NCBI RefSeq assembly: GCF_965363235.1
Contig: NC_134839.1
Span: forward strand, 96,181,743 to 96,245,742
Direction of reading: 5' to 3'
Source: Mytilus galloprovincialis
Lineage: Eukaryota; Mollusca; Bivalvia; Mytilida; Mytilidae
Length of the DNA: 64,000 nucleotides
The position numbers were made by a program, and so were the translations under genes. The notes beneath the pieces are model-generated. The model did not search any database. It saw only the letters and a program-made list of their open reading frames with translations, and was not told where the DNA came from. Every line of letters begins with the position of its first letter. Within the stretch, counting starts at the first letter, position 1. This document shows, piece by piece, positions 23,462 to 62,966 of this stretch.

Positions 23462-23517
23462 TATATAAAGACCTTCAGAATTATTTCGTACAGATCACTC
23501 TCAATTAGATATCTCAG
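23462..23517 (+). promoter_or_regulatory. Core promoter and non-coding exon 1, copy 1
   Basis: TATATAAA at 23462-23469, initiator-like ATCACTC about 30 bases on, and a short leader ending CAG|GTGAGT (exon end 23517). About 130 bases upstream of the TATA box are also conserved in all four copies (GTGCACAACTACATGTACAT..., ATGATGTAAAC). Confidence 0.75.
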
Positions 23518-23863
23518 GTGAGTCTTATAACTAATTAGGTTTAATTTATTTCACATCAACAAATTTATATTTATATGGTAAAGAACCATTTTACCAATTT
23601 TAACTTGCAATAACACTAAACATTAAGATAATAGGTGTGAAAAACAGTATGTGCGGGAACACATATATTGATTTGTATATCAATTGTTTGCTTATTTATT
23701 TTTTAATTCATTTTCTTTCAATTTTGTTACAGTGCCTTTCAATGCATAACTTGTGTTATTATTTAAGCGTTCGCAAGAATAACTTAATCTCAAAACACAT
23801 TATATTGTCATAATGAGTTGAAATCAAAATATTTCCTAATTCTAGTCACCAACCACCATCAAA

Positions 23864-24499
23864 ATGAACAAATCCATCATCCTTGTCCTTGTCCCATGCC
23901 TTGTTGCTTTCGTCATGGCCCAGCAATACGGATACCAATCCGGATACCAGTCAGGATACCCAGCTTACTACCAGAATCAACTTAATGCCTACACACAACA
24001 GAGAGGACTGTACAATTATGGAAACGCTGCCACAGCTCAACTCAAAGGAGCCAAACTTCTAAATTACTGTAAGTATATTTTTTAAAACAAAAAAACGCTA
24101 ATAATCATGACAGGACATATTCGGTTATTACAAAATTTATTTAAACCTATTTTTTTTTGTCATTTCTTTCCTTACAAAAAAAGATAACATTACTTTACTC
24201 AATTTTGTATATTTAAAAATTATTTAAAAAAAGGAGTTGAGTAAAGAGTTTATAAATTCAATGTTTGTACATTGTTATAGTTTGTTAAAAAATATTATAC
24301 AATAGTTATCAGTCTTGCCTAAATACTTTGTATTCTCAATAGTATATACATACAAAACGTTCTTTTAATGTTCATGCATTATTATAGTATAAAAAAAATA
24401 TTCAAAGCATATATAATCTGTATTTCAGTGTTCGGATTCTTGCTTCTCCTGGACCTCACAAACGCCACAGGAAACTCATTGACTAGCAGCTTGGGTTAA
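23864..24499 (+). CDS. Secreted Tyr/Gln/Gly-rich 91-aa peptide, copy 1
   Basis: Exon 2 is 23846-24068 (ATG at 23864, 18-base leader after the TCTAG acceptor) and exon 3 is 24429-24504 with TAA at 24497; a split Leu codon joins them. The 3'UTR exon starts at 25840, with AATAAA at 26063. The product has a signal peptide (MNKSIILVLVPCLVAFVMA), then QQYGYQSGYQSGYPAYY with a GYQS repeat, a QNQLNAYTQQRGLYNYGN segment, KGAKLLNY, and a hydrophobic stretch LFGFLLLLDL followed by the sequon NAT and a Ser/Thr-rich end. There are ten Tyr in residues 22-68 and no Cys in the mature part. I do not recognise the family. An adhesive, shell/byssus matrix or immune peptide are all guesses. It is the only plus-strand copy, tail-to-tail with copy 2. 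Confidence 0.88.
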
Positions 24500-25839
24500 A
24501 CTATGTAAGTATATTCAAATGTAGAATTTCCAGCATCCTTAAAGTCTTTTAAAAACAACCTACGTGTACATGTTTATTTACGTCCGAACAAATAAATCCC
24601 AGATGTCCCAAACTTGTATCTCATTTCCACCTTTACCACATCTATTTTTCATTAATTGTAAATCAAAACGTAAAACCAAGATCTTTGGTTTCTTCTTTTT
24701 TCATTCTGTAAATTTTGGGTTTCACTCATATAATATATTTATCCATAAATTGGTCTTATTTTCAACATTCTTATGCTGGTAAAGAGCACATTCTTGGCGA
24801 CGTGATTAGGAAGCATACAACAGTTAGTTGTTTGTTTCTCATTTTGGCCACTGTGGATTTTTCAAATATAAGAGCTAGTGTGCAATAAAATTCATATTTT
24901 GGATAGCTTAAGATGAAAACAGCCTTCATAGTATATATATCTTTATTGGAACATCGATCAAGATTGTGTAATGTATGTATTATATAGGCTGTTTTCTGTA
25001 TGACAGTCCGTATTTTCATATCTATAAGCATTGAAGTTCTAGTTTAAATCAAATATTGGGAGAATATGTGCCATGTTCATGCCCCTTAATTTGTGCAATA
25101 TTTTGTGGTAAATAAATGCAATATGTTACCATGGATACACAAAAAAGGAATTATATTTCACCCTTTTAACTTTCGAAAATTAAATCTATGGAATATACTG
25201 ATTATATACATATGCACTTTTATTACACAACAGTTGGCTGAATGTATTAGAAAGCCAGGAATAGAAGACGATTTAACATTTTGTGGTTCAATTTTAATTT
25301 CATTTTCTAACTATGGAGTGCTACCTTAGCAGATAATTTCTTTAAGAAACCAAATAAGAATTAAAATCGGAAACTTCATTAATTTTCCCAGTGAAATTAC
25401 CTAACCTTAAATCGGATAACAGGGAAAATACCATGTGACCCACTTGCTGTCCAAGAAAAAGATTTTTTTCAATCACTTTTTGATTGGAAATTGCACCTTG
25501 TTTTTCATCGTTTTTTTTTTAATCGTGAAATAATTAGCTGTCAAAAGTAAGTTAAAAGATTGTAACATAAACACAATTTTACGTATATATTTAATAATTG
25601 ACCGTAGAAGTCTTATCAACAACCAAAAGATAGGAAGATTATATTTCTGAACTGTGACAAACGAAAAAAATGCATTATCGACAACAAAGGTCCATTGAAA
25701 GCGTGATTGTAATAGGTGACCGAGTTGTTTTAATGAATGTAAAAAGGGGACGGAAGAATAATAGTTTTGTTAAAACATAATACACACTTTTTCGAATGCG
25801 CTGGATTCTGTTTTAACTTTATCTATATTTTTATTTCAG

Positions 25840-26070
25840 ATGCTTACTACGTATACATAGTCAACTTAAACTAAGATGTTACTGCAGGATAACTTGATTT
25901 GCTAGCTCGACCTGCATTACCTTAAATTATGTCGTTTCCCGGTTCCAATGTTGTGTTTTCACAAGAGTAGAAACCAATAGTTTTACTGATCATTTAGTGT
26001 TTCAAGTCGATATGCAGAAGTTTATGTTAACAACTTGTATAATTTATTTTTACAGTTACTAAAATAAAAA
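25840..26070 (+). other. 3'UTR exon and polyadenylation signal, copy 1
   Basis: Acceptor TTATTTCAG ends at 25839. The exon is conserved with 38453 (copy 2), 47792 (copy 3) and 58706 (copy 4) downwards on the minus strand. AATAAA at 26063-26068. Confidence 0.7.
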
Positions 26071-26495
26071 AAAATGTATGAATGATTTCTTCACGTTTGT
26101 ATATAGATTATATGATAATACATAGACAGTATGATTTAACTAGCGCAATAAATCTAAGAATACTAATAATAATCTTTTATTCGTAAGCAATACAGCTTAT
26201 AGAATATAAATATTACAAATATTCAATTACATCAGTGAAATATATTTACATTTAAACAATTAGTCAAATAATCATATAAGTAAGTATACCCATATAACAG
26301 TACAGCAGAGTATGATAAAACATAACACATATTAAGCATTTATAATGATTAAATTAATTACGTGCCTTCTCGGCCAGAAATAAAAACTTCCATAAATTGT
26401 TAAGTTCCTTTACATTATGAACCGATAGCAGTTGTATGAGTTTAAAATAGTTTAAAATTCGAAGGTTTTCTCCAATAATATGGTTTGATAAATTT

Positions 26496-26708
26496 CTATC
26501 GAAGGTCATTATACTTTTCACATACTAAAATAAAATGATATTCATCTTCAATTACTTGTTTATCACACATATTACAAAGTCTCAGATGTCTCTCAATATT
26601 ATAAAATCGACCAGTTTCTATATTCAAACAGTGAGCAGATATGCGATATTTGCAAATAAATGGTTTATAAATATAATTTACAGCATGATTTAAATAAAAT
26701 TGTAACAT
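26496..26708 (-). pseudogene. LINE ORF2 C-terminal zinc-binding segment
   Basis: RHLRLCNMCDKQVIEDEYHF followed by ILVCEKY is the C-x2-C...H-x4-C C-terminal motif common in LINE ORF2 proteins. It is preceded by a KYRISAHCLNIETGRF block. Confidence 0.75.
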
Positions 26709-27138
26709 GTTGGCGAGTCTTCAAAAATGAGTTCATTTCACTATGAAAGCTACCCTTTACTCTATCTTTGAATTCACTTAAAAACAAATCCACATTTTAC
26801 ACCCTGATATAATCATACATCCTGGAACCCATACATGTATAATATGTCTCTAATTCGACAGGCCCAGTTATATTTGTCGTTTGGTTTTTTTTATTACATC
26901 TCTCGAGCATTTCTTCATAACAACATTTAAGAATACAGTTATCAGTACATACTAGTAATAACTTAAACTAATATTTTAACTTTCGACAATATCTTTCTAT
27001 AAACATAGGGTATCGTCCCAACTCACAATAAACCATATAATTAACAGTAGATGCTTTCACCTTTAATATACGTTTTAAGAATTTCATTTGAACTTGTTCG
27101 ATATCATCACATTTGTGATTTCCCCAAAATTCAAAACT

Positions 27139-28455
27139 TTAATTCAAAATACTTGCTACATACGTGTCAAACACTGACAGCATAGTTTCAAAATTAAAAC
27201 AGTCATCCTGCAATTTACTATACAGACTAAATAATGCTTTACGACCTTGGTTTGCTAATGATTTTTGAGTATATGTAAAATAACCATTATATCTAAATAA
27301 AATACCCAGATATACAAATTCATCACACATATCTATTGAATTTCCATTTAAATACCATCTCTAATTTGCTTTAACTTGTCCTCTGTTTCTGAATACAACA
27401 ATTTTGTTTTTAAACAATCAATAAATAAATTGTACTTATCAGAATAGACATTTAAACAAAATCATCTTTTGTAAATCTTCAATATTTTCACTGAACAATA
27501 TTGTGTCATCTGCATACATAAGTAAATACAAGTTCCACATTTTTAACTCATAAGGTTGACATCCTTGACTAATAAGCTCTATTTCCATGTCATTTACGTA
27601 CAATGAATATAAAAATGGGGATAACGATTCCCCCTGCATTAAACCAACATTACTATTAAAGAAATTTGAGAAGTTACCATCAAATTTTACTCAACATTTA
27701 AGTTTTGAATACATAGATTTTAATACATTTAATAGTTTACCAGTTACACCTAATCTAATAAGTCGTAACCATAATTTCATATGTGTGACACTGTCAAACG
27801 CCGTTTTATAGTCTACAAAACAACAATAAAATCTTTTACCAGATCTCAAAGATTTTGAAATTAAAAAATTGAGAGCGAAGATGGCGTCAGTAGTACCATA
27901 ACTGGGTCGGAAGCCAAACTGGGTATCTGTTAGTACATCATGGTTTCTACTCCATTTAGTAAGTCGAGCGTTGATGAGAGTTGTAAACAGCTTTCCAACA
28001 TGGGACACAAGAGATATTCCACGAAAGTTTCCAGGCTGATTAACGTCACCCTTTTTGAATACAGGGATAATAATACTTTTTACTCACAATGAGGGAAAGT
28101 CACCATTTGTAAGAATACAGTTAAATATTTTACACAACACAGGTTTAATGAAATTTTTACTCATAATACTGTACTCGTTCATCATATTATCGTATCCTGT
28201 AGATTTGTCTCGTTTTAACTTTTTAATACCATTATCAAGCTCTTTTTCCGTAAATGGAGAATCAAGCTCATCGAACACAGTACCTGTATTTTCGCCTGGT
28301 AAATCTTGCGGGTGTATATCTGGGTTTGAAGTTAATTTCTTAAAATGTTCTTCAAACTGCTCTAAAGTAGTTATATTAGGATGCATAACCTTTTTACGTT
28401 TCTTAAATTTCCTATAGAATTGTTTCGGATTAGTCCTTTTTAACGAAGCCAACAT
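27139..28455 (-). pseudogene. LINE ORF2 reverse transcriptase region
   Basis: RT blocks in order: FTEKELDNGIKKLKRDKSTG, an NQPGNFRGISLVSHVGK-like block near 28025, LTDTQFGFRPSYGTTDAIFA, RFYCCFVDYKTAFDSV (first Asp), GLMQGESLSPFLYSLYVND, and LLMYADDTILFSE near 27500 with the catalytic Asp pair. A post-RT segment (CDEFVYLGILFRYNGYFTYT) follows near 27310. At least four frame changes or stops separate these blocks. Confidence 0.85.
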
Positions 28456-28869
28456 GTTACTCTGAGTCTATTTTCATTGGACCGGTACTTATTAAAAGTT
28501 CCTAGTGCCTGTTGGTAAGCATTATATAAGTTTTTACATTCATCTGTAAACCATGATTTATCCGTTGTAGTTCTAAATTGTTTATAATCATCAGTACATA
28601 TATCACAGTATTTTTTAAGTCTAATTTCTGACTTTGTAAACTGTTCAAAAATATCAGACAAAAGTTTATTTAATTCATCCACGCATATATTGGTGTCACT
28701 ATTTTCATCTATATTGGTCAACATATCCTCAAACTGCTGGGCGTTAGACAACAAACTCTCTCTGACGTCATCTTCGCACTCGTTTCTCCATTTAAAAGTA
28801 TTATAAACATGATTACCACATGAGCATTGATCTTTGATCAAATTTACAGTATTGTCCCTAAGGTAAAAT

Positions 28870-29665
28870 TGAACTGACAATGGAGCGTGACATGTAAAAC
28901 TGGTAAACATTCCTACGTTAATACTCTTTACAATCTTAACTATATTCTCAGATAATAATAAATAGTCAAGTACACTACAACCATTTTTATTATTAAAAGT
29001 TATTTTACCACTATCTTCGCCAAAACGTCAGTTACAAATGCGTAACCCGGAGGATTTACATGATTGTAAAATTTTTGTTCGAAACTGTTGGGCACTTTTG
29101 TATCCTCGGAATGTCTTTGTACAAAATCTTGCCTATCATTTTCATAATCAATAAATGAGATATTGTCTTGTAATAATGGATCTAAGAAATCGTTCAATAA
29201 ATAGTCCGGTTTCAAACCAACACGACCATTTAGGTCTCCTAAAACAGCTACTGTACCAATATTAGAAAGAGATTCTATTTGTTCTTGCAAAATATCAAAT
29301 ACATCACAGTTATATTTACGATAAAACACATTTTTATCTGGAGGCATATATATAGAACATATGTATAAATCTAAATTATCAGGTGTTATACTTTTATCAA
29401 TTTTAAACCAAATCATACAATCCACACAACATTTCACAATTTCAATAAAATCCAATTTTTTTTTTATAAAACACTACTATTCCATCCCCGTTACATTTCT
29501 CTCTGTATAAACACTTTTTGACGTAACCTTTTAGATCAAAGTCTCCAGGGAATTTGACCCAGCACTCATTGAAGCACAGAATATCGTATTTCTTTATAAT
29601 TTAATTTTTTTTCCATCTTTTAGCTTTCGTATTATTCCTTTCGAAATATTCCAAGAACACACATT
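28870..29665 (-). pseudogene. LINE ORF2 endonuclease (APE) region
   Basis: Endonuclease/exonuclease/phosphatase-fold motifs in order: NVCSWNIS near 29660, CFNECW with the catalytic Glu near 29570, YICSIYMPP, VAVLGDLNGRVG (Asp/Asn) near 29225, SVLDYLLLSE near 28950 and a THAPLS-type end motif near 28885 in place of the usual SDHxPL. The enzyme would nick target DNA for target-primed reverse transcription. Frames shift and stops occur near 29595, 29460 and 29000. Confidence 0.8.
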
Positions 29666-29829
29666 TAAACACTCATGATTTCCCGTTTTAGTATTACATT
29701 TGTTTAGTTTAACATCACACTCCGCTGGTCCCTACTCCTTCCACAATTGACCGTTAACAAATAGCTTATCGCCGAAAATATATGCCTTCTTATGATTTTT
29801 CCGCTGTTGTTTCAAGTACAACCTTTGGA

Positions 29830-30815
29830 TAATGGGGGCTTATACCAAAATGTGTTTCCTTTAGGCGATTCGATACACTGCGGACATACTCCCTGTCGGA
29901 CATATCGCAGAATTTAGCCACGATTGGTATAGGCTTTGACGCGTTAGTGTTGGGTTTTCCTAATCGGTATGCCTTTTCAATTTTAATTTTGTGTCTAGCA
30001 TTTCAATGTTAAGAAATTGTTCACAAAAATTAAGCACTGTGTCGACACGGTTTTCACTCACTTGTACCGCGTCACTCTTCTTATCCACTGTCCTTGTTGC
30101 ACCCCCCTTATTCTCATTATTCGTTTCAACATTGTCATATTTTTCTTCCAGCGCAAAGAACAGAAGGTTTTGTTTCAGATTATCTGTTTCTATGTCTATC
30201 AGTTTGTCTCGGACACATATTGTGTCTGTTTTTGTCGTCTCAATACCATTGTTGATACAATCTACCCTCTTTTTAAGAGCTAAGTGTTCATCTTTAATAT
30301 CAGATAAAACTTGTGCACTTTCTTCCAACTTGCTTATTCTGTCTTTGCATTGGATCATTTCGTTATCAAGCTTATTGTGTTTTGTGTCCATCTTTTCTAA
30401 ACGTTCTTCAATTTTATCTAGAGTGCTTACTTTTGTCTCGACTCTTGCCATACGATGGCAGAGCTCTTTGAAATAAGAATCAATTGCGGGTGGTTTGGGG
30501 GATGGCGGCATTGGTGTTGTCATCATCGGCGGAGGGTACGACATGTATTGGGGCATACTTTGAAATCCCATAGGTGTACTTGTCATTTGTGTGTATTGGG
30601 GTCCTTGATTTAGTGAGTTATTCATTGCCATACTTGTATATTGATCGGAACTTGAGTTGTCTTCACTAAGTGTGTCTGAACGTACCTTGTTTTTGTTATT
30701 GTTTTCTTTGTTTACGTCCATACACTGTCTTTTGCTCGTTAAACCAGATAGGTCCGATGAGGAAGAATTTTCATATTTGTATTTATGGGCTGTTGATCGC
30801 CGTGGTCGATACAGC
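29830..30815 (-). pseudogene. LINE ORF1 remnant (coiled coil plus L1-like RRM)
   Basis: The N-terminal part is Ser/Lys/Asn-rich, then a Met/Pro-rich stretch (PQYMSYPPPMMTTPMPPSPK). A coiled coil with heptads follows (MARVETKVSTLDKIEERLEK to KLEESAQVLSDIK), then DNLKQNLLFFALEE, the RRM entry of L1-type ORF1 proteins. After a frameshift near 29990 the domain continues IKIEKAYRLGKP, IPIVAKFCDMSD and REYVRSVSNRLKETHFGI. ORF1 proteins of this type trimerise and bind RNA. The apparent start ATG at 30823 and its next codons lie in host flanking DNA, so the true N-terminus is missing. Confidence 0.8.
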
Positions 30816-31079
30816 TGAGTCATTCTCTCTTTTCTTAAATTTTACTTTAAATGCATTTACCAGTATTCAAATATTCTTGCGATTTAAACAACCATCATGA
30901 GCGTTTTTCAAAGACTATTTGAAAAATGATACCATGGAAATAACACTTTCATGCCAGTCTTTAGCATTTGTGGAATTGATTCAACCCAAAGGGGGGCAAA
31001 ATTTATTATAACATTATAAATGGCAAATCAGACTAATTCAAAGGGAAACACCATTAGTTATAACATTAGGTCTTTTTGT

Positions 31080-31320
31080 TCACTCATCGATTTCAATATA
31101 TTGGAATTTTATGCGACTGTCATACAAGTGAGAGGTTTTCTATCTAGAAACACAAGGTTTAATCCACCATTTTTTACATAAGGAAATGTCTGTACGAAGT
31201 TAGGAATATGATAGGTTTTCGTTTGATGTGTTTGAGCTTTTGAATTGATTACGTACTTATCGTTTCGGATTTTCCTCGTTTTGTTAAGTGTAATTAATTA
31301 TGGACTAAAACTCTGGGAGG
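31080..31320 (+). repeat. Dispersed repeat, arm 1 copy
   Basis: GCGACTGTCATACAAGTGAG, TTTAATCCACCATTTTTTACA and GATGTGTTTGAGCTTTTG blocks. The inverted counterpart is at 36870-37130 in arm 2, so the repeat predates the duplication of the two arms. Related to 825-1110 and 9725-9780. Confidence 0.65.
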
Positions 31321-31435
31321 GTGGTCCTTACTATGCAGTGGGTGGTAGGAAACAACTGCTAGAATAGGTCTATAGTCAGGTTTACAATTATTGTTAAGGT
31401 CGCAAAATGACGATGAAATAATTGCAAGGTTGCTA

Positions 31436-31935
31436 ATATGCAAATAAACTCATCCCAGATACCAGGATTAAAATGTAAAAAACTCATCAGTGACGCTCGA
31501 ATCAAAATAGGTTGAAAAGACCGAATAGTACGAAGTTGGAGAGCATTGAGGTCCACAAATTCCTAAAAGTTTTGCCAATACAACTAAGGTAATCTATTCC
31601 TGAGGTAGAAAATCCTTAGTATTTCTAAAAAATCTAAATTTGTAAACAGTTAATTTATAATTATGACCATATCAATGATAATTCATGTCAACACAGAAGT
31701 GCTGACTACTGGGCGTGTGATACCCTAGGGGAATAAAACTCCACCAGTAGTGGCATCGACCCAGTGGTTGCAAATAAACTCATCACATATATCAGGATTG
31801 AAATTTATCAGTGACGCTCGAATAAAAATAGGCTGAAAAGTCCAATTAGTACGAAGTTAAAGAGCATTGAGTACCAAAATTTCCTATCAGTTTTGCCAAA
31901 TTCAGCTAAGGTAATCTATTCCTGAGGTAGAAAAA
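31436..31935 (+). repeat. Two SINE-like fragments in direct orientation (31436-31612, 31768-31935)
   Basis: Both contain ATCAGTGACGCTCGAAT, TACGAAGTT, GAGCATTGAG and AAGGTAATCTATTCCTGAGG, matching the tail half of the SINE-like family at 56939-57129. They lie about 155 bases apart and are absent from arm 2, so they came after or were lost there. Confidence 0.7.
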
Positions 31936-32463
31936 AGTAATCAGACATCGATATTTTCCTATAGATTCGTATTTAAATAAGCAAAAACCGGTGACATTAT
32001 ATATCTTTTATCAGCAGATGTCGTACATGTATCACGTGAAAAAAAAAGAAAGTCAACTTTCAAAAATGAGTAATTAAAATATGCCGAGGAATTCATCTCT
32101 TAAAAAAGGAATAGGAAGCATGGACTATTGCAAATTGTTTTAAAAATGTGAAAAAATAAAAACAAAACATCAATGATCCGATTTTTACGGAAGTGAATTC
32201 AAATATGTATGCAATTAAGTTACTCCTCATTACAGGAGCTGGTATCGTTTAGAGGTCGGTTCAACCCCTTTTATTATGATTCAGTGTGGATACATTTTTT
32301 TACAAAATTAACACAGAATATAGACTTTTGTCTAGATTTAAAATAAACGTCGGTGAACAAAACTGTCAAGAGAGGTGCAATGTGGGTACTTTCATTTAAG
32401 CTTTAAATACATATTTGTTACCAAATATATATAATTAAAAGGGTATGCTTTGTTTTTATATTA

Positions 32464-33666
32464 CAGCAGATTCCAACGAGTATGAAGCTACAGGTAGATT
32501 CTTTGGTTAGCTTCCTTGCTAGCTCAACCATGAAATGATTATTACCTTAAAATTGGGAGGAGCATAGCACTAATTCATCATCCAATGAAAACACTCATAT
32601 CAATGGCCTGTTTATAATAATAATGTATGTTTCATACAAACAGGTTTACCTAAACAACTTTGCAAATTAAATTTAATTTCTTATAGTCTTTGATTGAATT
32701 AAAAAATTCTTTGTATTACAATAAATTAGAAGCGGAGTTACGGTTTATTTTTTGTTCAAGGATGATAATATTTAGTGTTGATTCAATGCTAAACAAATAG
32801 AAATTTTATATATAGAAAATCCACATCATTTCCCCTTGTACTCTCATAGTTGGCAATTTGGTACTTGATAGATGGAGGAGCAGTGCTAGCAATGATTTCC
32901 TAAAAAACAAGTTTAGAAATTTAGATATTGGTTTAAACATATATATATAAATATGGACCAATTCAAGTACACCTTCTAGGATGCGCTCGACTTTCGTGAC
33001 TTAGCACGATTTTTTTTTAATTTAAAGGTTGTAATAGGACTTTTTGTAAACTTTAAACGCTAGCACATCATAGAAAATCAAGAGAGTAATCTATGCTTCA
33101 AATTTTATAACAAAAATATCTGTGGATTTTCTACAAAGATCTTGGTTTTTTTGACACAAAATCCTGTTTAACTTTAAAAATGCAATGAAACTATTAATAA
33201 TAATGCTTGCTTGAAGTTTCCCCTTTGTATATGTACAAAATGGCCCATCTCTATTATTCATTATCTTTGCTGTTTTTATACTATTGCAGTTTGAAAAATT
33301 CGTAATTCAAAGGCAACAGAAGGATATTTACGCCGTGATTGTACCATTGTAAAGTATATACACATAACTGTATTTATAAATGAACTGAGTAATTGATTGA
33401 ATTAATAAAATTGGCAATTCAAACACACCTACAACATGCTTGTGAATATTTAGATTGAAAACTTATTTTTAAACTGACTTGTAAAAACTTGTAAAACTAG
33501 TTTTACAATGTTTATATTCTGTCACTAGTTCTGATTGGTTCTCTGTTTAACTATTGACTCCACCCACAGGCTTGTGTACCTTACCTAATAATGATTTCAT
33601 GGTTGAGCTAGCAAGGAAGCTAACCAAAGAATCTACATATAGCTTCATACTCGTTGGAATCTGCTG
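32464..33666. mobile_element. 1.2 kb TA-flanked TIR element (Tc1/mariner-like, non-autonomous)
   Basis: TIRs of about 80 bp begin CAGCAGATTCCAACGAGTAT and carry TTTGGTTAGCTTCCTTGCTA. It is flanked by TA (32462-32463 and 33667-33668). Arm 2 near 35965-35985 has the uninterrupted site. No transposase coding was seen. A TA duplication fits the Tc1/mariner group but does not prove it. Confidence 0.8.
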
Positions 33667-34055
33667 TAAAATACACGAGCATGATGGGTTAATCGATGTA
33701 TCAACTGCTCACCTCTACTGAAAACAGATGGAAGTGTTTCCCCGAGGATTATACAGAATACAAAAAGGGCTGAATTGGCGTAGTATGCAGAATACACAAC
33801 GTAATTAAAGCACAACTGATAAGTCTTATAAGTACCTAGTATAAATATTTGTGAGGTCAACCATTTTTTAATAAGCGCATTTGCTAATGCGAATATGGTG
33901 AATTTTTTAACCTTACGTCAATACTTTCCATACTCTTGCTGTGTGCAATCTTTTAATTGATAGACCTGAGACCTTTTCCATTTTGATCTTCCCTCAATTG
34001 GTTTATTACACAGGTAACCATAGGGAGGCATATGGGGGTCAAAATCGCCACTTAT

Positions 34056-49529: not shown

Positions 49530-49598
49530 ACTCATATGTTGATTTTTAAAAGCCTTAATGGATGTTATACATTCCACATTCAATTATACTTACATAGT

Positions 49599-50680: not shown

Positions 50681-50811
50681 ATTTCATGATAAAAATATTA
50701 TGAATGGCAAGTTCAAATTGGTTAAATGGTTCTTCACCATGTTGATATTTGTGTAAGTTAAACAACAAAGTAAATCGTTGTTTTTAAATAAATTAAACAT
50801 CTAAGACTCAC

Positions 50812-50867
50812 CTGAGATATCTAATTGAGAGTTATCTGTATGAAATAATTCTGAAGGTCTTTATATA
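50812..50867 (-). promoter_or_regulatory. Core promoter and non-coding exon 1, copy 3
   Basis: TATATAAA at 50867-50860, leader AGTTATCT...CTCAATTAGATATCTCAG, then |GTGAGT (exon end 50812). Same spacing as copies 1, 2 and 4. Confidence 0.75.
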
Positions 50868-51830: not shown

Positions 51831-54800
51831 CTTATTTATTTTTTTATTTTATTGGTTATTTTTTTCGCTTTCATAATTATTTTGGTCTCTAAAATATTTA
51901 CGGCAAAGGTCTCAACTTGTTTTCTAGTTGATGGCTATAGCGAAGAGCAATGTATATAGACCACTGTATAACTAAGTAGATGTGTCAATTTGCTCTACAG
52001 TTTCTGTTTCATAGTTCTCTTGTATATTTAGACTTTAGATTTGATGACTTTTGGTAGAATTGAGATAGAAAAAGACTAAGAAAGTCTTTGGATTTTGTAA
52101 AAACAACAGTTTTGACAAAGCAAAGTAGGAATTCAGTTCCAGCAAGTGCATTTTTTAATGATAACTTTTGTGTTTCAAATATAACACAAAAAGTTTTTTT
52201 TATGGGAAGCATATTCCTAACAGGAAATATTTCTTTTTTGTGACACAAATTTACTGACACCGGACATTCAAAATTGTCCCTTTACACATTTTCATTGCAG
52301 TTTTTAGAATTCTATCATGCAGTACTACTTATGTATGTTTCACTTTTCACCTCTTTTGCAATATGTAACAACTTTGCACTTTAATATAATTGGATCTTCA
52401 AATGAAATTTTCTCAGTCAGATTATGGTTCTATAGAAACCTACAAAAATAAAACTACATATTAAATCACAAGACAAGTACCTCAAAATTGTAGTTCAAAC
52501 CTAGTACTGTAAAATAATGGTACTGACTTAGTTTAGGTTTAAGTATTAAAATATTACAATATGCAATTTCACTAAATTTTATCACATTTTACCTTCATTT
52601 TTTAAGCCTTACAGGAAAGCCTTTGTCCTAATCGATACTTAGCTTAAAACAGTATGATAATATTACTCTATTTTTTTTTTAATTTTGTGATTATTTCGGA
52701 AAAGAAGCGAATATGAAATTTTGTATTTTCATATTGTATTAATATGTGAAAATCCAAATGAAATATATCGGAAAAAAAACCACCATGAAAGTTACTATAT
52801 TTCTTGATGGTTTTTTTAGTTTTTTAATAAACATTGACTTTGTATCAATATTTCAAGGACAAATAAATGTATTGTAAGCCACTAAAGTTATACCCTACCA
52901 TACATGTAACATGTTTGGACAGAGAAGACGGAAAATAGCATGCATAACTTTAAAACGAACCTATTATAAAGTTTTCACGAAACAATGATTTTATGATACA
53001 TTTGTAATAACAAAGTCATGAGAGAAGTAACTCATACAAATTCAATGTATGAGTAATGAAAAGAGAGCTATGAAGGTATTCACACAACGATGATATATAG
53101 TCTTAATGAAGCAATTTTTAACATCCTTTGAACTATTGAAAAATAAAATAACAAAAATACCGAATTTATAGTTATTATATGAATTAAAAAACTAAAAATT
53201 GACACAGTCAACAGATGCCATCAAGGTGTACATCGTCCATATATTGGTTACTTTGAGAAGATTTGAATGTATATGTCGACATGAAGTAAATAAAAACAAA
53301 AATTAGCAGAATTACATTTGAAACGAAAATTCTTTGAAGCATCTTGAATGTCAATGTGCAAGAATAAAATATCAAATTACAAATTTTCATTAAATGTAAC
53401 CTGTTCAAATCTGTAAAGACTTCGTTTTTTATTTGTTTTCATGTTCAGTTTGAGACCGGTAAGACTTCACAAATCATATTTATTTTAAAAAATCATCACT
53501 AAACAAATAAAATTCTTGAGAAACATATTAAGGATTCAGAAATAAAGAAAGTTGCTTTTACTGATATTTATCCCTGTATGTATGTCGCCTCTTGAAAAAA
53601 AAAAACAAATGCAAAGACTGAGAGCAGATTTCGACCTTAACATAATTATCGATTGATTTGATATACAATCTTATATTGTAAGCACAATGAAAACATGTTC
53701 TGTAAATTATCGAATTTGCGTTTTATTCTCACATCATCAAAATTGTGTCTTATTCTCTAATTTTTTAAATTATAGCTCATGACTTAGAACTTATCCTAAA
53801 AAAATGAACAAATGGCATATACTGTATAACTTAAAATACCCATGCCTATGATACACTATTTTCACCCAATAATCTACTTATTTCACCTGGCCCAAAGGTC
53901 TAGTGAGAGCTTTTTAAGGGCATCACTAGGCGTCCGCTGTCTCTAAATATTCCGTAAACTTTCATCATAAATCACTTGACCGGATAGAAACCAAACTTGG
54001 CCACAAACATCCTTATTGCTTCGCATCACGGTGTGGAGCTATTAGTTTCAGTCGAAATACATGCCATCTTGAATATTTTTTTTTATCACGTATAGATTGT
54101 GATTGGCTGCATTATAATGAGGCTGAGATACAGCAACAGCTATTGGCTTAAATGAGAGAAAGAATTACAGACTTTTCTCGTCCAGGATAAGACATCAAAT
54201 GCCGGAAAATTAACTATGTGTATTTCAGTTCCGATCAACTGTCATTAATTCATGTTCGTTTTATTATGCATACATTTCACAGATAAATTCAATATTGAAA
54301 TATCAATTATTAATACGTGTTTATTACTCTTCAATTTGCACGATTTGCTTTGCTAAACAATGTTCCTATACAATGTTTACAAAAATGCATTATCTGTATT
54401 TTATAACTTCTGACAATATAGGCACACCTCCAGAAAGGCACACCTCAAGAGTCGTGTCTAATTTTATAATTGTTTTAATTTTCAACAAGAAATTTAATTT
54501 TTTTAAAAGCATGGGTGTATAACGCACACTCTTAAAGTACATCCATTTTATATCAATCAATATCTAGAAATACCACATTTCCAATACTAATTTAACAACC
54601 ACATGCACACATATAACCTTAAATTAGTGTAAAGCGAAGCAGTCCATAGATTTTTAGAAAGCTAAAACTTGTGGTATTTAGTTTCTTTAATATGTTTGGT
54701 GATCCTACCTGCCAACCGATATGGCCGCAAAGGTTAATCATAGTAATTTTACTTAAAACGCAAATATTGTTGTTTATTATATTGTTACAAAAAATGTAAC

Positions 54801-55247
54801 TTTTGAGGATAAGAAAATCCGATCCGAAATGAACTGTGAAAATTTACATTTTTTATAAGAAAACTGTAAGACAGCTTCCTTTAGGAGTTATTGTCGTAAA
54901 ATGGTTCATTTTGAGATAACCATTAAAATCTTTAATTACACATAAAGTGAAACTGTAAATAGCAAAATGATAAGCAGGATCAGACCTATAATTCACTTAA
55001 TTTTGTCGTTTTTGTCAGTCGTATCTTGAATGAGTAATTGCCCTTAAATGATGTTTTATCCATTTCGGTATTTTATTTGGAAACTAGAGTTGACAGGGAA
55101 AAACTATAAAGAGGGCTCTATAAACAGCCTAAACAAGTGTCACGACAAATCTACATATTAGTCAACGCTCCTTTTTAAGAAGTTGTTGCCCTTGAAATAT
55201 GCATTTTACTCATGTTTGTGTATTTAAGGAACTAAACTATATATATG

Positions 55248-56698
55248 TTGTGTACAAGTTATCATTTTGTACAAATTATAATTCGTACAAAAATATTGTA
55301 CAAATTATAATTTGTATTTTGACTTTGTACAAACTATAATTTGTACAAAACGTGCCTGTACAAATTACATATTGTACAAAATTTGACCAAAATTCACTTA
55401 TAACTTGTACAACAGTTTTAAATATGAATTTTGGTGAAAAATGCATTGATTCACACAATAGAATTGTAATTAACTGACCACACACTAAATCTTATTAACA
55501 AAATACACCGTTTTTACACAATAACAGAAGGCAGAGTGAGAGAAAAAAAAAGGTAAACAAATAGGATTTTTTTCAAATTTTTTATACATTAACTACTTTT
55601 TCTTAAAAAAATATCATTCAGTAGTACTGCTTGATTAGTTCTTATCGTTATTTTAAGGATTTTTGTTTTATTCAGAAGCTTTGCAAAAACGATTATAGTG
55701 AAAGATCGTGTACATAATTTTGATGATCGTGAAAAGGATCCCAAAAGATTTGTTGCCACTTATTCTTTATTTTAAAAAGTCCATGAAAACAATCAAATCT
55801 TTCTTTAAACAAGTGATAATTTATATTTGTAATTGGTACATCAAAAGATTGGATTTACATGACTTATTCCGCTTCACTTTTTTTTGTGAAAAGATTGATG
55901 GTTCAATGCCATTGCGTCTGATGATTTTATTATACTACACCAACTAGTTTTCTTATAAAATAAAAGTCTGTCTGTCTGTTCTGCATACGTTTTATGTTGT
56001 TTTTAAAATTTAGATTGTCTCAACTGATTTCCGTTAATATAAGTTTTATGCACAGTCATAGATATTTATAAAACAAAGATCCTTGTTGAAAAAAAAAACA
56101 TTGATAAAAAACCGGCAGAAAAACAACTGACATATTCCTGACTTTAGCATAGTCATATTCCTAACCAAATGGGGTGTTTAATCTCGCTTTCTTTCTGGGA
56201 TATTTATTTGTCTAAAAGTCTAACTGAAGCAGTGAAATACACATGTTTATTCACAGCAACGGTTCCTGAGCTTCAACGTTCGCTATGTGAAGTAGTTAAA
56301 ATGCCTGTAAAACATGTCGTCATTGATTTTAGAGTCAAAAGATGGTTTGCAATACCTGATTCCATAAATCACTAGATCACCTGTTCAACGAATGATAAAG
56401 ACCTACTTTTGAATTTCGTAACTTAGGTGTACTGTGTGGTCATTTAATAGCAATTCAATGATGTGTATAAATGCTTTTTTCACCAAAATCCATATGATAA
56501 ATTATTGTACAAGTTATAAGTGATTTTTTGTCCATTTTTGTACATATTGTAATTTGTACAAGCACTTTTTGTACAAATTACAATTTGTACAAAGTCAAAC
56601 TACAAATTATAATTTGTACAATATTTTTGTACAAATTATAATTTGTACAATATTTTTGTACAAATTATAATTTGTACAAAATGATAACTTGTACACAA
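55248..56698. mobile_element. 1.45 kb TIR element with TTGTACAA palindrome arrays at both ends
   Basis: Long TIRs of about 250 bp start TTGTGTACAAGTTATCATTT and are filled with units of TTGTACAAATTATAATTTGT plus ACAA type, that is 24-bp palindromes. Unit 2 near 45610-45625 gives the empty site. The target duplication is not clean (left TATATATG, right TATACAGA). Interior 55500-56430 is AT-rich; the open stretches 55708-55947 and 56169-56375 show no recognised domain. Same plan as the element at 2008-5759 with a different palindrome. Confidence 0.85.
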
Positions 56699-56938
56699 TA
56701 TACAGATAGATTATAAAAAGCCTATGATGGTCTGAGCTACATACAGGTCAAATAATTCAACTCTTTTTGAGACTTATCGTCCTTTAAAGACAATGTATTT
56801 CCATAGTTTTTTTTATAGAAACAATTATCTTTAATAGACCGTGGAAGACACTCATGGGTCAAGTTGTTTAATACCTCCGTAGTAGTGTTGTTTACAGAAA
56901 AAATAATCAGCACGACAATATCTACTCAGAGATCAATA

Positions 56939-57129
56939 GTTATCAAAGGTACCAGAATTATAATTCAATACGCCAGACGCGCGTTTCGTCTACATAAGAC
57001 TCATCAGTGACGCTCAGATCAAAATAGTTTTAAAGCCAAACAAGTACAAAGTTGAAGAGCATTGAGGACCCAAAATTCCAAAAAGTTGTGCCAAATACGG
57101 CTAAGGTAATCTATTCCTGGGATAAGAAA
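56939..57129 (+). mobile_element. SINE-like element with 7-bp target duplication
   Basis: Flanked by ATCAATA (56932-56938 and 57130-57136); unit 2 near 45815 has the empty site. Head GTTATCAAAGGTACCAG, body GCCAGACGCGCGTTTCGTC and ATCAGTGACGCTCAGATC, tail AGGTAATCTATTCCTGGG. Other copies: 618-771 (minus), 31436-31612 and 31768-31935. Confidence 0.8.
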
Positions 57130-58486
57130 ATCAATATGACCGAAATTGGCAGTCGACACTTGAAAGTAGTTATAGCTACTTATGTATTGAATGATGAATG
57201 TTTTATCCATTTTTTCTCTTGCTAAAAACTATCAGAAACATTCTTATTATGCACACTGATTTTGGCCAAAGTGAACTATACAGAATCCTTGGATAATCTT
57301 TATTTATAAGTAGCGAATATACCTTCGCATTTGATTCATTATACTTAGGTTAACGTACCTGTGTAATAAACCAGTTGAGAGTAGATAAAAATTGAAAGTT
57401 TCCACTATTACCTACTGAAGCCTGGCAAGTTTAAAATTTAATACAACGAGAGGATTTTAAACATTGACGAAAGATCGCAAATACACAATATCTTCTAAAT
57501 TGAAGTCATTAATTAACTGAAATAATTTGACAACACAAAGCAAACATGTACATGTCTCCTTCATAATTTCACCAGTTCGACCTTAAAAGCTGGGATATGT
57601 AGGGGGAACTGAGTGCTGAAAAACGAGTTTACTGTAGTGGTCAATTCAGTCAATTCTATTATTGTATGAGTAATATGCAATCATGTATAAAAATAGATCA
57701 AACACTCGTTCTTCAATTTTCAAGCGATATAGTTTTAGAGTGGGCAGGTTGTTCGTTCATTAGTGTTTATTCACCAATGCTTGGCGTCACAAAATGAATT
57801 ATCCGTACTAGATACTTAGTTGAAAAGACACGTCAGTTGTGGTTTACTGATGTTTATTCTGCAAACTATTCTCATCCACACCCATTTGTATCCCGTACAA
57901 TCCTCAGGAGTGGATGGGGCATGTCGATCCTTTTGTGGTTGGGATGAGCAACTGAGACATCCAGTAACCCGCCATGTTAGTGTATTTGTAATATCAAAAA
58001 CAAATATTCATCGGTGTTACGTTATTTCACGGAAAAGGAAATAGAGTTGAGAATTATCTAATACATTGTCTACAGGAGTTTTAATCGAATATGTTAAAAG
58101 AATCAACGTCTGATCACTTGCATACTAGAAATTACAATTATACCACCAATTTTGCATCTATTTCATCACAATATCTCGACCTTATCATATATCATTAACC
58201 TGAAAACCTAGTGATGACCTTTTTCAGGGGCTCGTCCCTACCACACATTACATAGAATTTCTGGATTTGTATGGACAACGGATAATTATCAAATTCGTAT
58301 GATTTGCGATAACTTATGTGATGATTAATGTTGAAAATTGCATTTGAATCATCAGGATAAACTATATACAGGTGAATTAATTCAACATAGAATTGATAGA
58401 AAATGAAAAAAATCTGTACTCTTAAATATCTTGAGCGAGTCTTTCTAGTATCCCATATATACACACGAAGTAATTATTACAATTTT

Positions 58487-58706
58487 TTTATTTAAGTATT
58501 TATTAAAATAAATTGTACAAGATTTTAACATAAACTACTGCACATCGGTTTAGACACACTTATCATTCAGTATTATTATTATTCTCCACACTTGACAAAA
58601 TTGGAACGATGAAACGTCATATTTTCTAGATATACAGGTCGGACAGGAAGCTGAAGTTATCTTCGAGTAGCATCTAAGCTTTAGCTGAATATGTATGAAT
58701 CATCTT
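58487..58706 (-). other. 3'UTR exon and polyadenylation signal, copy 4
   Basis: Starts at 58706 on the minus strand after TTTCAG; AATAAA at 58492-58487. Confidence 0.65.
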
Positions 58707-59746
58707 CTGAAATAAAAAAACATTAATGAAGTTTAACCAATGTTTCAGTCATACTAGTACGTATCCGAAAACGATGAAAGATTGGTATTATGTTTAATTT
58801 ATTATTATTATTAGTATTACCCTAACTTGATCACCTATTAGAATCACACTTTCACTGGATATTTGTTATCTATAATAACATTTAATTTTTCTTATTTTTT
58901 TTCAGTAAAGAATAAAAAGTTATATTTCTTGCAATTTGTTTGTAGACAAATATAAATGAGATTTTAGCACTTATGAGTGTAAAATTGTGATTTGGTTACA
59001 ATCAATTTTTCATGATTAAAACACTAATGAACAACAATATAGAGATACAATTTCAAGCTAATATCATTTTCTTTGACTGCTAGTGCGACATATATCATTT
59101 TGCCGTTGACCAGTTTAAGGTTAAGTGTTTCGGGTGCCATTGCAAACACATATAAATGAAAAAGCACAACGTGACGATATTTCATTGGGACAATTAATGA
59201 AGTTTCCGTAGTTTCTTTCTTTTTTTTATATGTTTTAAAGTAACTATATTGATAATCACGCTGCTGAATGCGCTCCTTATAATCACAAGAATTACGAAAA
59301 AGCTTTATGTGACGCCAAAGATGTTTATAACGTAAAAGGTGACCGATTTGTTTATAAAAATAAAACCTCAAAGATTTATAACGTAAAAAGTGGAAACCAA
59401 AGACTTCCTCTATTTAATCGTAATTTCGATTTTACAATTAATGAACATGAGATTGGTGTAGGTTCAAATAGGACACTGGTTTCGAAAAGGTATTCAAACA
59501 GCGACTTGTGAAAAGCATCATAGAATTTAAGTACAGAACAGATTGCTGTTTTCTGGAACATACATGTACTGGTATATTACATTAGTTCATATTTTTTAAG
59601 CATCTTGTTTTTCATTAATATGTTCTATACATGGTTAATCTCGTTACTATTAGTTAAGTCATGAATAAACATGTACCTGTAGGTTGATTTAAAAAATAAA
59701 AGAATTTGGATGTTAGACAATTCACATTCAATTATACTTACATAGT

Positions 59747-60275
59747 TTAACCCAAACTGCTGGTCAATGAGTTTCCTGTGGCGTTTGTAATGTCCAAAAG
59801 AAGCAAGAATCCGAACACTGAAACAAGCATATCATGTCAAATGATTATTGTTTTATATTGTATCATGACAAAAAAATATTTGAAATATTAGCTCTATTCT
59901 TATACTTATTAATTTATAAAATGTTTTTGCAGTGTTTAAATATTTTTTATATATGATGTACTAGATTTAAACTTTGAGTTGGAAAATAGATAATGAAAAT
60001 AAAGAGAATTTGTGGGATTTATAACTGAAATAGGTACGTTTGTGTTTACTTATAACTAAATTAGACTTACAGTAGTTAAGAAGTTTGGCTCCTTTGAGTT
60101 GAGCTGTGGCAGCGTTTCCATAGTTGTACAGTCCTCTCTGTTGTGTGTAGGCATTAAGTTGATTCTGGTAGTAAGCTGGGTATCCTGACTGGTATCCGGA
60201 TTGGTATCCGTATTGCTGGGCCATGACGAAAGCAACAAGGCATGGGACCAGGACAAGGATGATGGATTTGTTCAT
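59747..60275 (-). CDS. Secreted Tyr/Gln/Gly-rich 91-aa peptide, copy 4
   Basis: Exon 2 is 60293-60071 (ATG at 60275) and exon 3 starts at 59817 (TAA at 59749-59747). The predicted protein is identical to copy 1 except Leu78 to Ile, shared with copy 3. The signal peptide, GYQSGYQSGYPAYY, KGAKLLNY, LFGFLLLLD and NAT sequon are intact. Its first intron is enlarged to about 2.6 kb by the TA-flanked element 60620-62763, so the promoter sits at 62911-62966. Only one first exon is seen here. Function unknown. Confidence 0.87.
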
Positions 60276-60619
60276 TTTGATGGTTTTTGGTGACTAGAAT
60301 TAAGAAATATTTTGATATTCACTTAATATGACAATGTAATTTGTGTTAAGAAAGATAATCTTGTGAAGAAAGTTTTACTTGCACGCTTAAATAATAACAA
60401 AATGTAACAAAATTGATAGAAAAATAATAATTAAAAAATTTAAAACAACCAACAACCAAATAAATAAAGTATTTTAAGGAATCTTTATTGTTTTAGGATT
60501 ATGTTTGCCTAACACAATGACTTAAAATAAAGATTTATTGAAGATAAGATACAATATATTGAGATACCTTACAAATCTTCCAAAAAAAAAGCTGTAAAAT
60601 ATGCTTCATATAGACATTA

Positions 60620-62763
60620 CAGCCCGTAACAGAGTAATGATCGAATTCGTGTTTCTTTACCGTCAGAATAAGTTACGTTATCGACAAACTTATTTCAGAA
60701 GTGACATAATTTAATTTTCTTCATCGACAAAATATTTCATGTCCAACGTGTAAGTTTTCATTGTTTAAGTCGAAGTTTTTTTAACACAGTAAAACATTTT
60801 TTATAATCAACCTCTGTCATTGGCATTTTCATTTTAATGGTAAAGGATTGCTCAATGTAGATATTATATACTGCTTGCACTGTGAATATTAATGGGATTC
60901 AACACTGTAATAGTTTTTCTTTCGTCTGATACAGAATACCCCATATCTTTTCTTTTTCATACCTATCTGTTTATTATGTCCCCTGGATTATGTCAATCAT
61001 ACATTGTTGCAATACCGACATGCTTGTACTTTGTCACAGAAAAAACTGAAATAAATTTCCTTCACATCGAAGTAAAAAATACAAATGTACCCTTTAACAT
61101 TTGAAATGTTGAAGACATAATTGCTCTATATCTTAAGTTATTGACGAATATTTGAAATTTAAACCCCTATAAGATGCGATGTACGGCATTACATTTTATC
61201 ATTGGTAATGATCCATATCCGACAGAGAAGAAATATTCATAATTATCAGAAAGTTTTCATAAATATTGTTAGATACCACTAATCGTTCCAACAATCAAGA
61301 CAACAGAGACAAACAGGGGAAAAAATATTAAAATGAAAAGATATGACTTAAGTGTTAGCATGTTCAGGGAGACGGCACTCAATTTACAAAAAAAATAATT
61401 GATGTTTTAAGGAACTGTAGAGGTCTCCACAGGTTTTCAACAAGGGTAGAATTCAAAACCTTGAATATGAAAGCCTCGAAATCCATGATACTTTTTCTGT
61501 GCGGTAGTTATATCTACAAAATCCAATCATGTACACGACATATAATATTCATACATTATATAAAAAAGAAGATGTGGTATTATTGCCAATGAGACAACTA
61601 TCCACAAAAGACCAAAATGACACAGACATTAACAACTATAGGTCACCGTACGGCCTTCAACAATGAGCAAAGCCCATACCGCATAGTCAGCTATAAAAGG
61701 CCCCGATAAGACAATGTAAAACAATTCAAACGAGAAAACTAACGGCCTTATTAATGTAAAAAAAGAACGAAAAACAAATATGTAACACATAAACAAACGA
61801 CAACCACTGAATTACAGGCTCCTGACTTGGGACAGGCACATACATAAATAATGTGGTGGGGTTAAACATGTTAGCGGGATCCCAACCCTCCCCCTAACCT
61901 GGGACAGTGGTATAACAGTACAACATAAGAACGAACTATAAAAATCAATTGAAAATGGCTCAACTCATCAGATGGACAAATATACAAGTGGACGTGGGCC
62001 GGTATGTATATTTATATATTGGGGATTTATTTTTGTTTCCAAACAGAATTCTAAGGTTATGTATAAGTGCCTCCGTTCACTGCACAATTGTAAATTGTCT
62101 TCCTAAAGACCAGGAAAAATAAATGGCACAAGTTCACGTAGTCATAAAAGAAGTCGTATAATTTACGATAAATCGAACAAAAAATCAGAAATACGGAATA
62201 TTATATGTTAATGGTTAGGAAATCCGTTTCCCCTACATGTTTTAAAAGTCAAAGAAAAATGTTTTCCCTGATACAAGCGTTTTAAGAACCAGCTTTGTGT
62301 AACCTATAGACAAATTCGACTGGATATAAGGAAGTTTTAATATGTTTACTCTGATTTGAAATGATTTTTAGTCCGAAAAATAAAGGACTTCATTCCTATC
62401 AAACACCTTTTTAATTGTTTACCAGTATATTTCTTTTAGTTTTGGGTAAAATTGTAAAGGAAATAATAGTATCAAGACGTCCTTCCTTAAATCTTTTTTT
62501 TTCTGTTCTGACTTTGAAGAAATGACTACTTTTTGCCCAATCGAAATGGTGCATGGACATATTTTGTTTCATATTATTAGAATTATTTTCAATATTATCG
62601 GTATTAAACTTGATTATCGAGACATGAAAGTTTGTCAGCATTGTCAATCTTTTTAACGTTAAAGTACCAATAGTACGGTCACTACTCAATTAAGTTTGTC
62701 GATAACGTAGCTAATTTTGACGGTAAAGAAACATCAATTCGATCACTTCTCTGTTACGGGCTG
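60620..62763. mobile_element. 2.1 kb TA-flanked TIR element in intron 1 of copy 4
   Basis: Imperfect TIRs of about 75 bp begin CAGCCCGTAACAGAG and carry TTTCTTTACCGTCA and ACGTTATCGACAAACTTA. It is flanked by TA (60618-60619 and 62764-62765). It contains the retroposon-like repeat 61558-61970. Open stretches (60892-61104, 62411-62689 minus) show no transposase motif. Tc1/mariner-like by target only. Confidence 0.8.
61558..61970 (+). repeat. Retroposon-like dispersed repeat, longest copy
   Basis: Blocks in order: GAAGATGTGGTATTATTGCC, TTAACAACTATAGGTCACCG, TACGGCCTTCAACAATGAGC, CAGCTATAAAAGGCCCCG, CAAACGAGAAAACTAACGGC, TTACAGGCTCCTGACTTGGG and CCAACCCTCCCCCTAACCTG. Same family as 19420-19730, 46955-47400 and 49294-49529; its core also lies within the TIRs of 2008-5759. 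Confidence 0.8.
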
Positions 62764-62910
62764 TATCAAACAGTCAGCAGTTTTAAACAATAGAAAAAAG
62801 ACAAGTTAAAATTTAGAGATTTTTTTTTATCTTAATGCCGATAATTCAATTTAATCATGGAAAATATTCTGTTTGATAAGGATGGCGCAATATTTAGTTA
62901 TAAGACTCAC

Positions 62911-62966
62911 CTGAGATATCTAATTGAGAGTGATCTGTACGAAATAATTCTGAAGGTCTTTATATA
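62911..62966 (-). promoter_or_regulatory. Core promoter and non-coding exon 1, copy 4
   Basis: TATATAAA at 62966-62959 and a leader ending CTCAATTAGATATCTCAG|GTGAGT (exon end 62911). The donor-side flank (GATAAGGATGGCGC) matches the flank of the second first exon of copies 2 and 3, as if the two repeats had recombined into one. Confidence 0.72.

What the first reader, a model, noticed from the sequence alone, without database searches (positions are those of the whole stretch)
23462..62966. Four-copy array of an unrecognised secreted Tyr/Gln/Gly-rich peptide under strong constraint
Seen: four complete genes with the same exon plan. The 91-residue products differ at only two residues (Ala55Thr, Leu78Ile), while exon 2 of copies 1 and 2 differs by five synonymous changes and none that alter the protein. 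Introns and spacers have many insertions. Inference: strong purifying selection, or coding-biased gene conversion, on a dosage-sensitive secreted product. The Cys-free mature part with GYQS repeats, a hydrophobic LFGFLLLLDL and an N-glycosylation sequon does not match a family I know.
Basis: partly seen in the sequence, partly recalled or inferred. Interest (0 to 1): 0.8.

Follow-up and report, generated by a model that had tools for sequence, protein, structure and literature searches.

The report
Four near-identical secreted tyrosine-rich peptide genes
A 64-kb stretch of what looks like mussel DNA carries four intact copies of a gene for a small secreted tyrosine-rich peptide; the protein has hardly changed while most of the DNA around it has drifted far, and one of the copies looks like a hybrid of two others.

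Summary
Four intact genes (c1 on +; c2, c3, c4 on -) encode one 91-aa secreted Tyr/Gln/Gly-rich peptide, Cys-free in its mature part. Copies differ at two residues (A55T in c3; L78I in c3 and c4) although 16 of 91 codons vary. Intron distances are 0.105-0.508. Amino-acid constraint is real. Exon 2 is also homogeneous at silent sites (c2-c4: 1 of 53, against 6 of 17 in exon 3). No family match in Pfam, PDB, viral contigs or paper text; two short prokaryote matches are unrelated low complexity. No animal protein database was available, so "unrecognised" is not proof of novelty. The gene plan matches published Mytilus myticalin genes, yet the four myticalin peptide features tested fail. Most likely product, by inference: an abundant secreted structural or matrix polypeptide. 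Tissue and function are untested.

The parts
23462..23517 (+). c1: TATA box (TATATAAAG) and non-coding exon 1, ending CAG|GTGAGT; transcription start inferred
   Evidence: same 56-base block in all four copies, 0-2 differences per pair
23846..24068 (+). c1: exon 2 (18 nt 5'UTR, ATG at 23864, codons 1-68 plus first base of codon 69; phase-1 donor)
24429..24499 (+). c1: exon 3 coding part to stop TAA; GTAAGT donor-like site 5 nt after the stop
40781..40836 (-). c2: TATA box and non-coding exon 1
39889..40111 (-). c2: exon 2 (ATG at 40093)
39440..39510 (-). c2: exon 3 coding part (stop TGA)
50812..50867 (-). c3: TATA box and non-coding exon 1
49919..50141 (-). c3: exon 2 (ATG at 50123; A55T); the switch from c2-like to c4-like sequence lies in or next to this exon
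49599..49669 (-). c3: exon 3 coding part (L78I)
62911..62966 (-). c4: TATA box and non-coding exon 1; intron 1 here is 2,617 nt
   Evidence: length
60071..60293 (-). c4: exon 2 (ATG at 60275)
59747..59817 (-). c4: exon 3 coding part (L78I)
23193..34065 (+). left arm of the inverted duplication carrying c1 (interrupted by insertions)
   Evidence: blocks 74-87% identical to the right arm in reverse order
35578..41100 (-). right arm of the inverted duplication carrying c2
40093..49919 (-). tandem unit 1: exon 2 of c2 to exon 2 of c3
   Evidence: collinear blocks with unit 2
50123..60071 (-). tandem unit 2: exon 2 of c3 to exon 2 of c4
   Evidence: collinear blocks with unit 1; mean K2P 0.143 in the part upstream of c2/c3, 0.170 in the part downstream of c3/c4

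Best explanation
Shown: a locus with four intact genes for one secreted 91-aa precursor (signal peptide, then about 72 residues rich in Leu, Tyr, Gly, Gln and Asn, no Cys in the mature part, no dibasic site, a hydrophobic stretch LLNYLFGFLLLLDL near the C end). Shown: the protein and the 56-base TATA/exon-1 block are held nearly fixed while introns and spacers drift. Shown by distances and collinearity: c1/c2 are an inverted duplication, and c3 is a chimera, c2-like upstream of exon 2 and c4-like downstream. Inferred: c3 arose by unequal crossing-over between c2-type and c4-type genes in exon 2, a stretch alike enough to pair, and occasional conversion there keeps exon 2 homogeneous. Inferred, function: an abundantly made extracellular structural or matrix polypeptide of a bivalve, probably a mytilid; the Tyr/Gln/Gly/Ser-rich N half would be flexible, self-associating and oxidisable at Tyr, and the hydrophobic tail would drive assembly or membrane/matrix contact. 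Several near-identical copies plus C-ending codons would give bulk output.
For: Genes and constraint: (dN 0-0.010 over six pairs; 14 of 16 variable codons silent only). Neutral yardstick. Chimera: c2-c3 similarity runs in collinear blocks from about -5.5 kb to +215 and beyond that is 64-68% in two blocks plus the exon-3 block; c3-c4 similarity runs in blocks from -201 to about +4.5 kb with only islands further upstream. In intron 2 all 57 informative sites of the 4-way alignment pair c1 with c2 and c3 with c4, whereas in the 3' end of intron 1 c2-c3 is the closest pair (K2P 0.113; c1-c2 0.147; c3-c4 0.333). Mean K2P c2up-c3up 0.143, c3down-c4down 0.170, c2down-c3down 0.409, fitting one event. 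Homogeneous exon 2: silent differences c2-c4 1/53 versus 6/17 in exon 3 (Fisher 6e-4), c2-c3 2/53 versus 6/17 (0.002), c3-c4 1/53 versus 4/16 (0.009). Codons: 20-22 of 25-26 NNY codons end in C where intron-2 C/(C+T) is 0.21-0.27. Composition class: GYS-rich low-complexity proteins are reported in Mytilus galloprovincialis nacre (PMC4517812, section 20 read).
Against: No expression, proteomic or tissue evidence; the structural role rests on composition only. Small mussel adhesive proteins are recalled to be richer in Lys/Arg/Gly. c1-c2 exon 2 is not clearly more homogeneous than exon 3 (5/53 versus 3/17, Fisher 0.39). In intron 1 the 4-way site counts alone do not favour c2-c3 (12|34: 4, 14|23: 3, 13|24: 1), and the second alignment in that call gives some minority-pattern sites in the first part of intron 2; the case rests on distances and collinearity. 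The 190 bases upstream of TATA are only moderately conserved (6-21% differences). Divergence at the far ends of the unit (0.24-0.28) exceeds that near the genes (0.05-0.17) on both sides, so a single clean event is a simplification. The DNA upstream of c4 is cut by the window end. C-ending codons could also reflect GC-biased conversion.
Confidence: 0.5

Rival explanations
1. It is a Cys-free mucosal defence peptide, a relative or convergent product of the myticalin type of gene, with the hydrophobic tail as the membrane-active part.
For: Gene plan as published for myticalins: non-coding exon 1, intron just before the ATG, exon 2 with signal and mature peptide, phase-1 intron 2, C-terminal rest in exon 3, Cys-free, clustered (PMC5577615 and PMC12294457, passages; here). 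Most hydrophobic 15-residue window of the mature part: mean Kyte-Doolittle 1.77.
Against: Myticalin mature peptides have pI above 11 and over 10% Arg, a dibasic Lys-Arg site in nearly all, an anionic C extension and hypervariable mature parts; here pI 8.97, 1 Arg of 72, no dibasic pair, 1 acidic residue in the mature part and an almost invariant sequence. The tail is not clearly amphipathic (moment 0.05-0.27 over 19 windows of 18 residues).
Confidence: 0.2
2. A secreted signalling or reproductive peptide (pheromone, seminal or egg-coat component) kept invariant by its receptor.
For: Near-invariance of sequence including the tail; N-terminal Gln after the likely cleavage site could form pyroglutamate (inference).
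Against: No dibasic processing sites; low-complexity repeats and several near-identical copies suit bulk rather than signalling use (inference).
Confidence: 0.15
3. Exon 2 sameness is due to selection on silent sites (translation efficiency, splicing signals) alone; gene conversion plays no part beyond the one crossover that made c3.
For: Codons are strongly C-ending against AT-rich introns; the TATA/exon-1 block is conserved separately from exon 2, across a more variable intron 1.
Against: Silent sites of exon 3 in the same transcript diverge more freely (c2-c4 6/17) than those of exon 2 (1/53), although exon 3 is at least as C/G-ending (GC3 0.57-0.70 against 0.47-0.53). A conserved overlapping frame is no reason: both other frames of exon 2 hold a stop in each of the four copies.
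Confidence: 0.35
4. Assembly artefact: alleles placed in tandem.
For: Not tested with reads.
Against: Introns differ by 10-51% and pooled spacers by 13-31%, the copies carry different insertions, and one is inverted, too much for alleles.
Confidence: 0.03

Closest known systems
Myticalins / modiocalins (Mytilus, Modiolus; PMC5577615, PMC12294457, passages)
   Same: Non-coding exon 1, intron before ATG, phase-1 intron 2 splitting off the C-terminal part, Cys-free; myticalins also lie in clusters
   Different: Not Arg-rich, pI about 9, no Lys-Arg site, no anionic extension, different signal peptide, mature part invariant instead of hypervariable; an apparent donor after the stop suggests a further 3'UTR exon
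CRP-I peptides of Mytilus (PMC10138031, passages)
   Same: Short exon 1 with 5'UTR only; tandem duplicates, some identical
   Different: CRP-I mature peptides carry a Cys array encoded in exon 4; here no Cys in the mature part
GYS-rich low-complexity nacre proteins of M. galloprovincialis (PMC4517812, section 20)
   Same: Composition class (Gly/Tyr/Ser low complexity), no known domain
   Different: No sequence of those proteins was seen here, so no alignment could be made
Small Tyr-rich mussel foot proteins such as mfp-3 (recalled, not tested)
   Same: Short secreted Tyr-rich chains, gene families
   Different: Recalled to be rich in Arg/Lys/Gly without a Leu-rich tail; not compared by sequence

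Membership tests
Myticalin | Three-exon plan with 5'UTR-only exon 1 and phase-1 intron 2 | tested here: met
   Exon 2 ends after 205 coding bases (phase 1) and exon 1 is non-coding, compared; but a donor-like site follows the stop, so a fourth exon is possible
Myticalin | Signal peptide consensus MKGXXLLLLTIXXALCMIXECEG | tested here: not met
   Compared by eye, no alignment run: here MNKSIILVLVPCLVAFVMA; consensus
Myticalin | Mature peptide pI above 11 and over 10% Arg | tested here: not met
   pI 8.97, 1 Arg in 72
Myticalin | Dibasic Lys-Arg cleavage site | tested here: not met
   No KK/KR/RK/RR pair in the c1 precursor; the two residues that vary among copies are A/T and L/I, so none in the others
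Myticalin | Anionic C-terminal extension | tested here: not met
   One Asp, no Glu in the mature part
Any Pfam-A family | HMM match | tested here: not met
   0 families at E up to 10
Any chain in the PDB | Sequence match | tested here: not met
   12 rows up to E 10, best E 0.051; taken as chance
Shell matrix / periostracal / byssal protein | Presence in the material or expression in mantle edge or foot | not testable with these tools
   No transcriptome or proteome at hand
Mussel foot proteins (mfp) | Tyr hydroxylated to DOPA; sequence likeness to an mfp | not testable with these tools
   No mollusc protein database at hand

The most novel reading that the evidence does not exclude
A mussel-lineage family of self-assembling secreted Tyr-sticker peptides with a hydrophobic tail, kept near-identical across diverged tandem and inverted copies because exon 2 serves both as the functional core and as the recombination seam, so that copy number can change by crossing-over inside the gene without altering the product.
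Probability: 0.25. Interest if true: 0.55.

Novelty: new member of a known kind. Interest (0 to 1): 0.38.

Why it matters
It is a compact natural example of a small protein gene held fixed in several copies: protein and TATA/exon-1 block constant, most of what lies between them drifting, and one gene apparently built by a crossover within the conserved exon. In mussels, where myticalins and CRP-I peptides are reported to vary widely between individuals, a secreted Cys-free peptide that hardly varies between diverged copies points to a material or dosage role rather than an arms race. If expressed in mantle or foot it would be a candidate low-complexity material protein small enough to synthesise and test.

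Tried and rejected
Family searches: Pfam gave nothing; PDB gave 12 rows, best E 0.051, taken as chance; IMG/VR had 116 pattern hits and no confirmed relative; GTDB contigs gave 2 short matches of 18 and 23 residues. Both were read: L001 is a short tandem DNA repeat; L002 is a GYQSGYQSGY run inside a longer stretch that reads as charged protein by eye. Both rejected as unrelated low complexity. Paper text was searched for 13 peptide strings in three searches: 0 papers.

No genome is held.

Dual coding of exon 2 as the cause of low silent change: not supported. Frame 1 begins with a stop in all four copies and has further stops in c1 and c3 (after that first codon it is open in c2 and c4); frame 2 has a mid-exon stop in c1, c2 and c4 and one next to the end in c2, c3 and c4.

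A 3'UTR exon: a donor-like GTAAGT follows the stop in all four copies, and one weakly conserved island lies downstream (c1 +746..824, c3 +1072..1151), but no acceptor or poly(A) site could be matched between the copies; left open. No Rfam family reaches its gathering score in the window. No tRNA (bacterial settings).

Papers on concerted evolution or gene conversion in mussels: one search, listing only (12 of 111); nothing on this gene seen in it. Two searches for mussel Tyr-rich secreted or multigene peptides were seen as listings only.

Structure prediction was not run: the tool states that it takes only proteins readable letter for letter from the window, and this one is spliced.
Full report
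What was checked. The window is AT-rich (GC 0.319). Gene models were built from conserved splice sites. Each gene has a TATATAAAG box, a short non-coding exon 1 ending CAG|GTGAGT, an intron of 328 (c1), 669 (c2), 670 (c3) or 2,617 (c4) nt, exon 2 with 18 nt of 5'UTR and 205 coding bases ending in phase 1, intron 2 of 360, 378, 249 and 253 nt, and exon 3 with 71 coding bases including the stop. All four are intact, 91 aa. The likely signal peptide ends FVMA|QQYGY (inferred from the -3/-1 pattern, no predictor run). The mature 72 residues hold 13 Leu, 10 Tyr, 9 Gly, 9 Gln, 7 Asn and no Cys; pI 8.97.

Constraint. Sixteen of 91 codons vary among the four copies; two change a residue (55 and 78). 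Pairwise dN is 0-0.010 and dS 0.076-0.159 over the six pairs. Taking the less diverged of the two intron stretches as yardstick, 21-61 replacement changes would be expected per pair; 0-2 are seen (five of six pairs tested). With the least diverged non-coding block of c2-c3 (0.048) the expectation falls to 9.8 against 2 (P 0.003). The TATA/exon-1 block differs by 0-2 of 56 bases; the 190 bases upstream of it differ by 6-21%, and the stretch 190-320 bases upstream by 12-42%. So the protein and the TATA/exon-1 block are held; the nearer promoter is only moderately conserved.

Array history. Self-comparison shows that c1 and c2 lie in an inverted duplication, about 23.2-34.1 kb against 41.1-35.6 kb, whose arms are broken by different insertions. 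c2, c3 and c4 are in tandem about 10 kb apart. The three are not equal: upstream of exon 2, c3 follows c2 for over 5 kb; from exon 2 downstream it follows c4 for over 4 kb, in both cases as a chain of collinear blocks. Mean K2P: c2up-c3up 0.143 over 3,482 sites, c3down-c4down 0.170 over 2,676 sites, c2down-c3down 0.409 over 903 sites, c2down-c4down 0.399 over 1,016 sites. Intron 2 has 57 informative sites, all joining c1 with c2 and c3 with c4. The simplest account is an unequal crossover in exon 2 between a c2-type and a c4-type gene, which yields the order c2, hybrid c3, c4 with the c2-c3 interval collinear with the c3-c4 interval. Relative order from distances: c2-type/c4-type split (about 0.40), inverted duplication (0.20-0.24), crossover (about 0.15). 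Against a single clean event: the far ends of the unit are more diverged (0.24-0.28) and the -680..-200 stretch of c2-c3 less (0.05), so later conversion or uneven rates are likely; in intron 1 the raw 4-way site counts are split (12|34 4, 13|24 1, 14|23 3); and c4 has little upstream DNA in the window.

Exon 2 homogeneity. The crossover that made c3 does not by itself make c2 and c4 alike, yet they differ at 1 of 53 silent sites of exon 2, against 6 of 17 in exon 3 (Fisher 6e-4; c2-c3 0.002, c3-c4 0.009, c1-c2 0.39; the pairs are not independent, and two of six pairs, c1-c3 and c1-c4, were not put to this test). Conversion limited to the part alike enough to pair is the reading I prefer; silent-site selection remains possible, since NNY codons end in C in 20-22 of 25-26 cases where intron 2 has C/(C+T) 0.21-0.27.

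What the product may be. No family match (with 26 and 39) and no peptide string in open paper text. The exon plan is that reported for Mytilus myticalins (PMC5577615, abstract and passages; clusters and plan also in PMC12294457, passages). But the four peptide features tested (signal consensus, Arg/pI, dibasic site, anionic extension) are not met, and the mature part is invariant rather than hypervariable. It is therefore not filed as a myticalin; whether the gene template is homologous is open. CRP-I genes also have a 5'UTR-only exon 1 (PMC10138031, passages), so this plan may be common among mussel secreted peptides. Composition resembles low-complexity matrix proteins; a Mytilus shell study reports GYS-rich types in nacre without giving sequences in the section read (PMC4517812, section 20). 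[quoted passage not shown] I commit to a bulk extracellular structural or matrix role at moderate-low confidence.

Limits. No animal genome, transcriptome or protein database was available; host identity is inferred. No expression data. 3' ends unresolved.

Noticed in passing
40592-40626 and 50623-50657 (-): Second copy of the last 25 bases of exon 1 plus donor inside intron 1 of c2 and of c3 (88.6% and 91.4% identical to c1 23493-23527), each with an intact-looking donor (CAG|GTAAGT, CAG|GTGAGT); a possible alternative exon 1 or a remnant of a small duplication.
   Followed up: partly
10722-21105 (+): Retroelement with a zinc-knuckle gag-like ORF, reverse transcriptase, a weak RNase H-like match and a sub-threshold phage-integrase match, with split direct repeats 10722-10894 = 18072-18244 (98.8%) and 17968-18076 = 21000-21105 (94.5%), the layout recalled for Ngaro/PAT-type elements.
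   Followed up: partly
26496-30823 (-): LINE-like remnant: pieces that look by eye like endonuclease and reverse-transcriptase ORFs, inserted in the left arm of the inverted duplication; the four ORFs given to Pfam gave only sub-threshold matches.
   Followed up: partly
49291-49522, 61557-61823, 19456-19727, 46965-47356, part in 2272-2362 and 5429-5520: Dispersed repeat with several copies at 71-92% identity, one in the 3' region of c3; it resembles, from memory, a mollusc short interspersed element.
   Followed up: partly
37194-37915: About 720-bp self-palindrome (82.7% identical to its own reverse complement), a fold-back element in the right arm of the inverted duplication.
   Followed up: no
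2008-2876 and 4875-5759: Inverted repeat pair of about 0.9 kb at 81% with internal short repeats, perhaps a mobile element with long inverted ends.
   Followed up: no
55264-55507 and 56410-56682: Cluster of short inverted and direct repeats between c3 and c4; no matching cluster between c2 and c3 appears in the list.
   Followed up: no
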